Source of the DNA: Leifsonia sp. AG29
GTDB lineage: Bacteria > Actinomycetota > Actinomycetes > Actinomycetales > Microbacteriaceae
Length of the DNA: 64,000 nt
Assembly (NCBI RefSeq): GCF_009765225.1
Contig: NZ_VMSF01000001.1
Span: 434,001-498,000, forward strand
Direction of reading: 5' to 3'
Shown here in pieces: positions 14,289-18,798 of the stretch (the stretch's first letter is position 1; each line of letters starts with the position of its first letter). The position numbers and the translations under genes were made by a program. The notes below the pieces were generated by a model. It saw only the letters and a list, made by a program, of their open reading frames with translations. It was not told where the DNA came from and made no database searches.

Positions 14289-16604
14289 CTACCCGCGAGC
14301 GGCTTCCGCCTCCTCGGGCGCCCGCCGCAGCACCAGGAACCGCGCACCGTACGGGCCGATCCGCAGCGGGAAGCTCGCCAGGTTGTCGACCGTTGCGAAC
14401 TCGCTGTCGTCGTCCGCGTCGATGACGGTCGCGCCGAGCGGCAGCGCCTCCGACCGCACGGTCCCGTCGACCTCGGCGCCCGTCATGTTGAGCACGGTCA
14501 GCTGCACGGTCGGCAGCCCCTGGTCGTCGAGCTCGTCGAGCTCATGCACGAGCACGAGCATCCCGGGGTGCGCGACATCGGGCACGTCGATCTGGCGCCC
14601 GCTCGCGATGCCGTACCGCGAGCGCAGCTCCAGCAGCCGTCGCAGCCGGCTGGCGAACGATTCCGGGTCGCGCAGCTGATCGGGCAGGATCCCGTACAGC
14701 GAGCGTGCCCGCGGCATACCCGACGCCGACCGCTCCGCGTCGGGGGCCACCCCGAGCAGATCGTGGGCGCCGCGCTCCACCCACCGGGTGTCGCCGTCGG
14801 CGATCAGGTCCGCGACCTCGTCGCGCGGGAGCGTCAGGGCCCCGAGCAGGTCCCATCCCGAGAGCGCGAACACTCCCGGCTGCCACGCGTTGAACGCCGC
14901 GAGCAGGAGGTGCGCGTCCCGGATCGCGGGCACGTCCTCCGCGGTGATCGAGTCGAGCGTCGTGTGCCCCTGGGTCGCCGCGATGAGGGAGGCGGTGGTG
15001 CAGGCAATCCCATTGGTCGTGAACACGAGGTTGTAGTCAGCCGCGTCGCCGGTGAGCGCAGCGGTCAGGTCGCCGCGGATGATCTCGGCGAGCTCGCCCC
15101 CGGTCACCTCCTGGTAGCGGAACGGGTAGAGATCGTCCTTGTGGAGGGTCGCCCAGTGCACGAGCTCGTAGGTGAGCTCGTCGTGGTTCTGCATGCCGTG
15201 CACCAGGCTCACCGGCTCGACGCCGGTCTCGAGGGAGGTGCGCAGCGTCAGCCGCAGGAACTCGGTGTCGCCGGTTGCGAGGGCGTGGTGGTAGGCGGGG
15301 CGGTTGATGAAGTCGTACGACAGGTCGGCGCCGACGGCTCCGGTGTCGCGGATGTCCTCCACCGTGAGGTTGAGCTCCTGGAACGTGAAGCCGCCCACCT
15401 TGCGCACCATGCCCGCGATGACGTGGTTCGCGGCGTGCGACAGCGGGTGGCCCTCCGACCAGGCGGGCATTCCCTCCACGCTCTTCTCCACGCCGAGGAA
15501 ACCGTTCGCGTCGAGCCGCAGCGCACTCGTGCCGAGGTCGCCTAGCGAGTGCAGTGCGTCGCCGATCACGAGCCGCATGCCCGAGAAGGTCGGGTCGAGC
15601 CAGTTGACCGAGGGCTGTCCCTCCTTGAAGTAGTGGAGGTACACCCAGCGGCGCGTGACGCCGTCGACGCCGAGCACCGGCGCGGTGACGCTCCAGTTGG
15701 TCTCCTTCACGCCGGGCGAGTAGAAGATGACGCGCTGGAGCTCCCCGATGATGTAGCCGCGGTCGGCGAGCGAGGCCTCGGTGGCGGGGTCGAGGTTCAC
15801 CGAGTCACGCCCCTCGGGCACGTCCGGCAGGAGGTGCCACTCCTCCGGCGGGATCTCGACCATGTGGTAGATGCCGGGGTAGTCCTTGTACGCCATCTCG
15901 GCGAGGCGGAAGTCCGCCCCCTTGCCGGTGTGGCCGGGGACGATGTCGTCGATGACGCTGCCGCCGTGCTCCTCGGCCACGTCGGTCAGGCGCCGGAAGG
16001 TCTCCTCGTCGCCGAACGCGGGGTCGATCTGCGTGCCGATTCGGTCGAAGTGGCCGTCGCCGCTGGGGGTCTGCTGCCAGCCGCGGATGCCGCCGGCCCG
16101 CTTGACCGGGCCCGTGTGGAGGCCGTTGATGCCGATCTGCTCGAAGACCGTCCACAGCTCGGGGTCGGCGAGGGAGGTGAGAAACGACTCGTTCGGACGC
16201 GTGATCAGCGAGATCGGGTAGGCGGTGAACCACACGTCCGAGATCGAGACGGCGCGGCGAGCGTCGGGACGCGCGTACGGGTGGCGCCACATGCTCGGCG
16301 AGCCCGAGAGCTGACGGCTCAGCACGTCGGCGTCCTTCAGCATCGACTGGCGGACCAGCCATTCGATGTAGGCGGGGTTCTGCCCGTTCGCGGCGCGAGG
16401 GTCGGCGAAGCTGCGACGCAGCGTGCCGCTGCGCAGGTTCGCGCGCGGGCGCAGGCGCCTGGGCCGCGCCGGGTACAGCTGCTCGTCGTAGGTGATCTCC
16501 GTCGCCTCCGGCTCCACCGGAGTCTCCGGCTCGACCGGGGCCTCCGGCTCGACCGGGGCCTCCGGCTCGGCAATGCTGGCCGTCTCGACCGGCTCGTCCT
16601 CCAC
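14289..16604 (-). CDS. GH13 alpha-amylase family enzyme, trehalose-synthase-like
   Basis: A 771-residue carbohydrate-active enzyme. The four GH13 regions are visible: DDIVPGHTG (region I), ALRLDANGF with the nucleophile Asp (II), TFQELNL with the acid/base Glu (III) and MQNHDE (IV). The pattern resembles maltose/trehalose-interconverting enzymes, but the exact reaction is uncertain. Before the domain is a repetitive Pro-Glu-Ala-Val tail (residues about 13-34) encoded by an 18-bp repeat. The GTG at 16604 follows AAGGAG; a longer in-frame reading to 16772 is rejected. Divergent from the LigD-like gene. Confidence 0.83.
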
Positions 16605-16704
16605 GTGTTCTCCTTCCGCCGCTGTGAACGGTAGTCCCGTGCGGGCCGATCCGGTGCATCCTGCGCCGACTCCGGCGTACCGTTCAGCCAGGAAGGAGTC
16701 TCGC

Positions 16705-18798
16705 ATGCCGACGTCTGCCGCACAGACGGTCGAGGTCGACGGCCGTCGCCTCCGGGTCAGCAACCTCGACAAGGTGCTCTACCCCGAGACCGGCACCACG
16801 AAGGCCGACGTCATCGCCTACTACCTGGCCATCGCACCGGCCCTCATCCCGTACGCCGCGAACCGCGCCCTCACGCGCAAGCGCTGGCCGAACGGCGTCG
16901 GCACCGAAGAGGAGCCGCTGCCCGCCTTCTTCGAGAAGGACCTCGGCAACGGCGTGCCCGATTGGGTGCAGCGGCGGACCATCGAGCACTCGTCCGGGCC
17001 GAAGCAGTACCCGCTGGTCGAGGACCGAGCGACGCTGGCATGGCTGGCCCAGGCGGCGGCGCTCGAGCTGCACGTGCCGCAGTGGCAGTTCGCCCGGTCG
17101 GGAGGCGCGCGCAACCCGGACCGCATGGTGCTCGACTTCGACCCGGGACCCGGCGTGGATCTGCCGACGACGGCGGGTGTCGCGCTGCTCGCGAAGGACA
17201 TCCTGGAGGGAATGGGCCTGACGCCCTTCCCGGTCACCTCGGGCTCGAAGGGCATCCACGTGTACGCGGCGCTCGACGGGTCGCTCACCAGCGACCAGGT
17301 GTCGGCGGTCGCGCACGAGCTCGCCCGCGCTCTGGAGGCGGACAACCCGGACCTGATCGTGTCGGACATGAAGAAGTCCCTCCGCGAGGGCCGGGTGCTC
17401 ATCGACTGGTCGCAGAACAACGGCAAGAAGACCACGATCGCGCCGTATTCGCTGCGTGGGAGGCCCCATCCGACCGTTGCCGCGCCGCGCACCTGGGAGG
17501 AGCTGCGCGAGCCCGGCCTCGCGCACCTCCTGTACTCGGAGGTGCTCGAGCGGTACGAGAGCATCGGCGACCCGCTCGCGCCCCTCCTGCGCTCGCGCGA
17601 CGCCGGCCTCGAGCCGACGCCCGAGCACATGGCGAGGTTCGTCTCGACGCCGGAGGCGCAGGACCGGCTCGCGAAGTACCGCTCGATGCGCGATGCGGCG
17701 AAGACGCCGGAGCCCGTCCCCGACGACCTCGGACTCCCTGGATCCGGGCGCTCGTTCGTCATTCAGGAGCACCACGCCCGGCGCCTCCACTACGACTTCC
17801 GGCTCGAGCACGACGGAGTGCTGGTCTCGTGGGCGATTCCGAAGGGCCCGCCGACCGACCCCAAGGTGAATCACCTCGCGGTGCCGACGGAGGACCACCC
17901 GCTCGAGTACGGCACGTTCGAGGGCGAGATCCCGAAGGGCGAGTACGGCGGCGGCCTCGTCAAGATCTGGGACGCCGGCGAGTACGACGTCGAGAAGTGG
18001 AGGGACGGCAAAGAGGTCATCGCGGTCCTGCACGGGCGCCCGGACGGCGGGCTCGGCGGCGAGCCGCGGAGGTTCGCGCTGATCCACACGGGTCAGGCGG
18101 GAGACGAGAAGAACTGGATGATCCACCTCATGGTGGACAAGGCGCACGCGGCGGCGACGGCGGCGCAGCCCGAGCCGGCCCCGATGGGCGTGATGCTTAC
18201 GAAGAGCGCCACCCGCCTCCCCGGCGCGGGCGCCCTGCCGGGAGGGACCCGCTACGAGCCGAGGTGGGACGGCGTCCGCATGGTCGTCACCGCCGCAGAA
18301 GACGGTGCCGTGCAGTTGTGGTCGGCGCAGCAGGAGGCGCTGACCGCCTCCTTCCCCGAACTCGTCGAGGCCGCGGACGGCCAGGTCCCGCCCGGCTGCT
18401 CTGTCGACGGCGTGGCCGTCCGCTGGGCCGGTGAGCGCCTCGACCCAGACTCGCTCGAGCGGCGGTTGACGGCCCCGGCGAAGACCGTCCGCCGCCTCGC
18501 CGACGAGGAACCCGCGAACTACGTCGCTTTCGACCTCCTCACGGTGGCCGGCACGGACCTCCGTGACCGGCCCTACTCGGTGCGCCGACAACTGCTCGAG
18601 GAGCTCGCGAAGGGCTGGACGCCTCCACTCTCGCTCTCGCCGTCCACCGACGACCCTGAGGTTGCGAAGGGCTGGAGGCGCGATCTGGCCCCGGCCGGCA
18701 TCGACGGCGTCGTCGCGAAGGGCGCCGACCAGGCGTACGAGGCTGGTCGGCGGGAGTGGGTCGAAGTCCGAAGTCAGACCGGCGGGCGCACCGGGTGA
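16705..18798 (+). CDS. ligD: LigD-like protein: polymerase + phosphoesterase + degenerate ligase domain
   Basis: A 697-residue homologue of the non-homologous end-joining protein LigD. Residues about 10-300 form the primase-polymerase domain with [15 protein letters not shown] and DWSQNN. Residues about 340-490 form the 3'-phosphoesterase, with [18 protein letters not shown] and GEYGGG. The last ~200 residues are an adenylation domain lacking key groups: motif I reads EPRWDG, with Arg520 in place of the lysine that takes AMP; DGE has become DGV (570); motif V is absent; and the OB-fold domain is missing. Ligation is therefore unlikely. The ATG at 16705 follows GGAAGGAG. No ku gene is in the window. 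Confidence 0.88.

What the first reader, a model, noticed from the sequence alone, without database searches (positions are those of the whole stretch)
18220..18798. LigD homologue with an apparently dead, truncated ligase domain
Polymerase and phosphoesterase motifs are intact, but the AMP-accepting lysine of motif I is arginine (residue 520, AGG), the Glu after DG is Val570, the motif V lysines are gone, and the OB-fold domain is missing. The protein may process DNA ends while a separate ligase seals them, or the domain may have a new binding role. The frame is open to the stop, so it is not a simple pseudogene.
Basis: partly seen in the sequence, partly recalled or inferred. Interest (0 to 1): 0.65.

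Follow-up and report, generated by a model that had tools for sequence, protein, structure and literature searches.

The report
End-processing LigD with dead ligase
A bacterial DNA-break repair protein has kept its two end-processing domains but has a dead, shortened ligase domain, while a second copy in the same genome has kept the ligase and lost one processing domain, so the two look like complementary halves of one repair enzyme.

Summary
The 697-aa ORF (16705-18798, +) has intact polymerase (POL) and phosphoesterase (PE) active sites, but its ligase (LIG) domain has lost the AMP-accepting lysine (R520), motif Ia Arg (A541), motif III Glu (V570) and both motif V lysines (E687, R689), and stops before the OB domain. 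A sequencing error is unlikely: a second genome of the genus (G025) carries the orthologue with the same Glu-to-Val change, an end at the same place, and further decay.

New here: (1) the protein is a chimera. POL-PE is not the genus's own LigD, and LIG is of LigC type. (2) The genus's own Ku-linked LigD is elsewhere in this genome with an intact ligase but no PE. Each of 28 genus genomes has one PE: beside ku in 26, in the window-type protein in 2. (3) Between the two genomes POL and PE evolve under purifying selection and LIG far less so, although LIG fold positions persist in this genome.

Best explanation: LigD functions are divided between two proteins. The window protein supplies PE (and POL) in trans; the Ku-linked LigD, or LigC, seals. 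Trans action is inferred, not shown. Split NHEJ domains are known; this is a new variant.

The parts
16690..16698 (+). ribosome-binding-site-like AGGAAGGAG, 6 bases before the ATG
   Evidence: read directly in the sequence
16705..18798 (+). ORF of 697 aa, POL-PE-pseudoLIG; ATG start, TGA stop. (The stop-to-stop frame opens further upstream; a GTG start at 16492 would give 768 aa.)
16798..17574 (+). POL domain (LigD_Prim-Pol), residues 32-290; DxD and third Asp present
   Evidence: Pfam 8e-81; alignment to 2iru; motifs located
17668..18132 (+). PE domain (LigD_PE_dom), residues 322-476; metal- and phosphate-binding residues kept
   Evidence: TIGR02777 167.7 bits against cut-off 144; alignments to 2lj6 and 3n9b
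18241..18762 (+). degenerate LigC-type ligase NTase domain, residues 513-686
   Evidence: PF01068 2.2e-23; LIG tree
18262..18264 (+). codon 520 AGG: motif I Lys replaced by Arg
18325..18327 (+). codon 541: motif Ia Arg (M. tuberculosis Arg501) replaced by Ala
18412..18414 (+). codon 570 GTG: motif III Glu (M. tuberculosis Glu530) replaced by Val; Val in the G025 orthologue too
18763..18771 (+). codons 687-689 (Glu-Val-Arg) in place of motif V Lys-x-Lys
18772..18798 (+). last 8 residues and stop; no OB domain

Best explanation
The gene encodes a DNA-end-processing protein, not a ligase. It is a chimera of a POL-PE pair related to LigD of other Microbacteriaceae and a LigC-type NTase domain that has lost the lysine nucleophile, several ATP-contacting residues and the whole OB domain. 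The genus's own Ku-linked LigD in this genome has lost its PE domain but keeps POL, the ligase core and OB. Together the two proteins carry the three activities of a normal LigD. The likely course: Ku binds a break; the POL domain (the Ku-contacting domain in studied LigDs) brings the window protein to the end; PE removes 3'-phosphate or 3'-ribonucleotide blocks and POL fills or adds nucleotides; the Ku-linked POL-LIG protein, or LigC, seals. Shown here: the residues, the missing OB, one PE and one Ku per genome, the PE-less Ku-linked LigD, the chimeric origin, and the selection contrast. Inferred: that the protein is made, binds Ku, and works in trans with the other ligase.
For: Dead ligase residues and missing OB (residue roles from passages of PMC8656161, where E613A or K637A abolished nick sealing). 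Intact POL and PE active sites. One PE (PF13298) in each of 28 of 28 genus genomes and one Ku in each of 28; by coordinates PE lies within 3 kb of ku in 26 and far from it in 2 (G000, G025). In those 2 the Ku-linked LigD has POL, ligase core and OB by Pfam but no PE, and its POL nests with the genus LigDs while the window POL does not (POL-PE tree, grouping with the genus rejected, p-AU 0.015). LIG groups with LigC-type ligases. Window against G025: dN/dS 0.18 POL, 0.16 PE, 0.68 LIG; pN ratio LIG/POL 4.55, against median 1.47 and range 0.43-2.52 in 270 pairs of genus LigDs (the pairs of 276 with POL pN above 0.02). Unfused POL-PE beside a separate LIG frame occurs in three other genomes of the family.
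Against: No expression, binding or activity data. The gene is not beside ku. The two genomes do not share the gene's neighbourhood, and a three-gene tree does not show them to be sisters (best tree with them together 10.5 log units lower, p-AU 0.061), so a single origin of the arrangement is not shown. Sub-functionalisation rests on two genomes. The Ku-linked protein may work without PE, as B. subtilis LigD does (PMC7719229 passage), in which case the PE of the window protein could serve another pathway. LIG keeps 30 of 34 invariant columns here, which a purely vestigial domain need not. The window PE region has low confidence in the predicted model (blocks 42-79 over residues 351-470; 17-sequence alignment).
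Confidence: 0.62

Rival explanations
1. Pseudo-ligase with a retained job: the dead NTase domain still folds and acts as a non-catalytic module, for example binding DNA ends, Ku or the partner ligase. It can hold together with the best explanation.
For: Of 34 columns invariant in 24 LigC-type relatives the window keeps 30; three of the four lost (K520, R541, E570) are nucleotide-contacting. With 7 active-site columns chosen after the fact, chance of 3 or more among 4 is 0.021. Residues 511-680 are modelled at pLDDT 84-96. The window LIG end branch (0.33) is no longer than those of relatives with intact motifs (0.40, 0.44).
Against: The G025 orthologue keeps 15 of 34 columns, has 49 gap columns in the LIG stretch, and is not recognised as a ligase by Pfam. 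AlphaFold also models its tail at 74-94, so the model does not discriminate. The relative-rate test is weak: 13 against 26 changes (p 0.04), 14 against 23 (0.14), 15 against 23 (0.19).
Confidence: 0.25
2. The LIG tail is only a fading remnant with no role, kept open because the genome is GC-rich and because the tail must not misfold.
For: dN/dS 0.68 in LIG against 0.16-0.18 in POL and PE; heavy decay in G025. Base composition alone leaves 185 codons free of stops with probability about 0.05, so an open frame is only moderate evidence.
Against: Fold positions kept in this genome; third-position GC still 0.88 in LIG against 0.94 in POL.
Confidence: 0.55
3. Residual partial ligase: no self-adenylylation, but sealing of pre-adenylylated ends, as truncated or lysine-mutant ligases can do in vitro (recalled, not from a call).
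For: Motif IV Lys672 and Arg525 and Arg683 are kept.
Against: Motif Ia and III residues and both motif V lysines are gone, no OB, and the G025 orthologue lacks motif I altogether.
Confidence: 0.04
4. The whole gene is on its way out, or the changes are sequencing errors.
For: Different neighbourhood in the two genomes.
Against: Strong purifying selection on POL and PE; shared Val570 and shared end in an independent genome; 3.64-Mb contig of a genome rated 100% complete.
Confidence: 0.06

Closest known systems
LigD of POL-PE-LIG order (M. tuberculosis Rv0938 type; NCBIfam PRK09632)
   Same: POL and PE in the same order with intact active sites; whole-length similarity (808.5 bits)
   Different: below the PRK09632 cut-off of 989 bits; LIG dead, LigC-type and without OB; gene not beside ku
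LigC (PRK08224 type) and accessory LigC-like ligases of Microbacteriaceae (G050, G053, plasmid POL-LIG)
   Same: the LIG part groups with them and is 50-51% identical to those of G050 and G053
   Different: those keep K at motif I (24 of 24 used); the standalone ones continue for over 120 residues after the NTase core
Nonconventional bacterial NHEJ with LigD domains spread over several proteins (category of PMC7719229; S. coelicolor and S. ambofaciens, PMC1378119 and PMC5124664; archaeal Methanocella, PMC4797286; all seen as passages)
   Same: POL, PE and LIG activities come from different proteins
   Different: here two full-length-like LigD proteins have lost complementary parts, and a dead ligase domain is still attached to POL-PE
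Two-domain LigD of Bacillus subtilis (LIG-POL, no PE; passage of PMC7719229)
   Same: the Ku-linked protein of this genome likewise has POL and LIG without PE
   Different: here a PE is kept on a second protein, and the domain order is POL-LIG

Membership tests
LigD (three-domain NHEJ ligase) | POL domain with catalytic Asp residues | tested here: met
LigD (three-domain NHEJ ligase) | PE domain with metal- and phosphate-binding residues | tested here: met
LigD (three-domain NHEJ ligase) | ligase domain with lysine nucleophile and motif V lysines | tested here: not met
   R520, E687, R689
LigD (three-domain NHEJ ligase) | OB domain after the NTase core | tested here: not met
   no residues for it and no remnant downstream
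LigD (three-domain NHEJ ligase) | gene beside ku, as in the rest of the genus | tested here: not met
   about 1.5 Mb from the only ku
LigD (three-domain NHEJ ligase) | Ku-stimulated end joining | not testable with these tools
   needs biochemistry
PRK09632 (NCBIfam equivalog) | score of at least 989 bits | tested here: not met
   808.5 bits, model positions 4-658 of 781
LigC-type ligase (for the LIG part only) | closest kinship of the NTase sequence | tested here: met
   in an 18-row LigC-type clade, SH-aLRT 100 (quick tree); the 9-row subclade 96; long branches present
LigC-type ligase (for the LIG part only) | catalytic motifs I, Ia, III, V | tested here: not met
Nonconventional NHEJ (domains in different proteins, with Ku) | Ku, LIG, POL and PE all present, not all in one protein | tested here: met
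Nonconventional NHEJ (domains in different proteins, with Ku) | the separate proteins act together in repair | not testable with these tools
   inferred only

The most novel reading that the evidence does not exclude
A two-protein LigD: the Ku-linked POL-LIG protein and a horizontally acquired POL-PE protein have lost complementary parts and now need each other, and the dead LigC-type domain on the latter serves as a non-catalytic docking or end-binding module (a pseudo-ligase) that hands processed ends to the active ligase.
Probability: 0.17. Interest if true: 0.72.

Novelty: new variant of a known kind. Interest (0 to 1): 0.5.

Why it matters
It is a natural experiment on why bacterial NHEJ fuses polymerase, phosphoesterase and ligase in one chain. 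A 2006 review (PMC1378119, passage) states that it remained to be discovered whether stand-alone NHEJ ligase, nuclease and polymerase proteins can interact in trans. Here a genome carries two LigD-like proteins with complementary losses while close relatives carry the fused enzyme, so trans action and its cost can be tested directly. For annotation it is a warning: PF01068 matches this protein well above its cut-off although the ligase is dead.

Tried and rejected
Sequencing error or simple pseudogene: rejected by the shared Val570 and shared end in G025 and by the low dN/dS in POL and PE.

Decay of the genus's own LigD in place: rejected. The genus's own LigD is the Ku-linked, PE-less protein.

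Mobile-element cargo: no support. No tRNA in the window, G+C near the gene 0.71-0.74 like its surroundings, no shared flanks with G025. I did not search for insertion sequences.

Anti-phage defence: P0001 matches no PADLOC model at E 0.001.

Intact POL-PE-LigC ancestor: not found. The plasmid LigDs of Arthrobacter (H1, H2) have LigD-type LIG. Of 398 family genomes searched with the LIG part, the two nearest matches are standalone ligases of G050 and G053.

Structure prediction as a judge between remnant and pseudo-enzyme: not informative; both tails are modelled with confidence.

Sisterhood of G000 and G025: neither shown nor rejected. The third marker (PF00006, longest frame of each locus) was not checked for orthology. 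Four of the 28 genomes (G003, G005, G022, G023) drop out of the 24-genome tree because a marker was missing.

Literature: listings show no title on a LigD with a dead ligase domain or on reciprocal PE/LIG loss; (Microbacteriaceae or Leifsonia with LigD) gave 0 and 3 papers, none on this by title. That is not proof of absence. Papers were seen as passages (PMC8656161, PMC7719229, PMC5124664, PMC4797286, PMC1378119), plus the abstract and outline of PMC8656161 and one section of PMC7719229.

Rows dropped before counts: six of 276 genus pairs with POL pN of 0.02 or less; rows thinned for the trees; G003 and G027 LigDs left out of the motif count because their frames are broken.

Full report
Observation. 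The ORF at 16705-18798 (+) encodes 697 residues from an ATG with a good ribosome-binding-site-like sequence. Pfam finds POL (32-290), PE (354-436) and the NTase core of an ATP-dependent ligase (513-686), and no ligase C-terminal domain. Codon 520 is AGG and codon 570 GTG. Alignments to M. tuberculosis LigD structures, read with the residue roles given in PMC8656161 (passages), show that the lysine nucleophile (K481) is Arg520, Arg501 is Ala541, Glu530 is Val570, Lys635 is Glu687 and Lys637 is Arg689; Arg486 and Arg629 are kept. POL and PE active-site residues are kept. Eight residues follow Arg689, and no OB remnant was found downstream. Of LigDs used for comparison, 24 of 24 unbroken full-length ones of the genus and 80 of 80 loci fetched from genome contigs keep KWDG. 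The 80 were the best 80 of 147 relatives found.

Genome. The window lies in G000, 3.68 Mb, 3 contigs. The genus is probably Leifsonia: contig G007:C2 has the length (118,178) of the Leifsonia shinshuensis plasmid NZ_CP043642.1, and both searches hit it at the same place. PF01068 has four matches in G000: the window protein, a Ku-adjacent 731-aa frame, a 373-aa LigC-type frame with a POL-only gene next to it, and a 534-aa frame. There is one Ku.

Division of domains. PF13298 (PE) gives one match in each of 28 of 28 genus genomes, and Ku one in each of 28. Comparing the coordinates, PE lies within 3 kb of ku in 26 genomes and about 1.5 and 2.6 Mb from it in G000 and G025. In these two the Ku-linked LigD has POL, ligase core and OB by Pfam, and no PE; both keep EMKWDG (translation). 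In G000 and G025 the single PE sits in the window protein and its orthologue. Two of the 26 (G003, G027) have broken LigD frames.

Origin. In the POL tree (52 rows) the Ku-linked proteins of G000 and G025 fall inside a 28-row genus clade (SH-aLRT 100), while the window protein and its orthologue pair together (100) outside it. A POL-PE tree (50 rows) agrees, and holding the pair with the genus LigDs is rejected (p-AU 0.015). The nearest POL-PE sequences by identity are 69-73% in other Microbacteriaceae. The PE tree (42 rows) is less resolved but also keeps the pair apart from the genus. In the LIG tree (47 rows) the window and G025 domains lie in an 18-row LigC-type clade (100) and a 9-row subclade (96) with standalone ligases of G050, G053 and G236 and plasmid POL-LIG proteins; their own pairing has support 82, and G025 is a long branch. 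These are quick trees. So the protein is a chimera of a LigD-type POL-PE and a LigC-type LIG.

Age and selection. G025's orthologue is 71% identical overall; it shares Val570 and ends at about the same place, has lost motif I altogether and has large deletions in LIG. Its LIG is no longer recognised by Pfam. Between the two, dN/dS is 0.18 (POL), 0.16 (PE) and 0.68 (LIG); a separate pairwise alignment gave 0.18, 0.15 and 0.62. pN in LIG is 4.55 times that in POL, against a median of 1.47 and a maximum of 2.52 in 270 pairs of genus LigDs, and 1.30 for the Ku-linked pair. The comparison mixes two LIG types, and synonymous sites are affected by very high third-position GC, so the ratio is a guide, not an exact measure.

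A result against a purely vestigial reading. Of 34 LIG columns invariant in 24 LigC-type relatives (three of which are the truncated plasmid forms), the window keeps 30 and G025 15; relatives left out one at a time keep 94-100%. The four lost in the window are A499, K520, R541 and E570, three of them nucleotide-contacting. AlphaFold models the window NTase core at pLDDT 84-96 over residues 511-680, but it also models the G025 remnant at 74-94, so the models do not decide. Relative-rate tests are weak. I conclude that catalysis was lost before the two lineages parted, that the fold has largely persisted in this genome, and that it has decayed in the other.

What it does. Best supported is a protein that cleans and fills DNA ends and leaves sealing to the Ku-linked POL-LIG protein or LigC. 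The parts, the single PE and the selection pattern are shown; recruitment by Ku, expression and cooperation are inferred. The modular nature of LigD makes this plausible: passages of PMC1378119, PMC4797286, PMC5124664 and PMC7719229 describe organisms with separate POL, PE and LIG proteins, and PMC5124664 describes LigC as back-up when the LigD ligase domain is defective. In three other genomes of the family (G195, G140, G333) POL-PE and LIG lie in two overlapping stop-to-stop frames on one strand, which shows, if not assembly error, that POL-PE need not be fused to LIG.

Limits. Two genomes only; their sister relation is unresolved (p-AU 0.061 against), so the arrangement may have arisen once, twice, or moved by transfer. 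Gene neighbourhoods differ.

Verdict.

Noticed in passing
L153 6953-8440 (G007:C2), L149 2201-4033 (G016:C20), L034 (G024:C7): Three plasmid-like POL-LIG proteins of the genus all end at ...RGGQRDW-stop, just before motif V and without OB, although motif I (KLDG) and the motif III Glu are intact. In L153 and L149 a 411-aa frame follows that looks by eye like a tyrosine recombinase. A fourth copy (L148, G023:C17) continues with KVKHRD and the rest.
   Followed up: partly
L167, L168 (G195, G140, one genus) and L169 (G333): LigD split into two overlapping stop-to-stop frames, POL-PE and LIG, on one strand in other Microbacteriaceae.
   Followed up: partly
L032 (G003), L033 (G027): Two small genomes (2.7 and 2.6 Mb) of the genus have broken LigD frames.
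   Followed up: no
G000:C1:240904-241764 and L004 36-1055: Two further POL genes in the same genome, one next to LigC.
   Followed up: no
L037 (G050), L148 (G023): Accessory LigC-like ligases with KWDG or KLDG and about 130 residues after the NTase core give no Pfam OB match (PF04679) at E 0.001, so the C-terminal domain of this group is diverged.
   Followed up: no
window 14289-16772 (-): The neighbour upstream on the opposite strand, with a frame overlapping the start of the LigD gene, matches alpha-amylase only just under the cut-off (21.7 against 22 bits).
   Followed up: no
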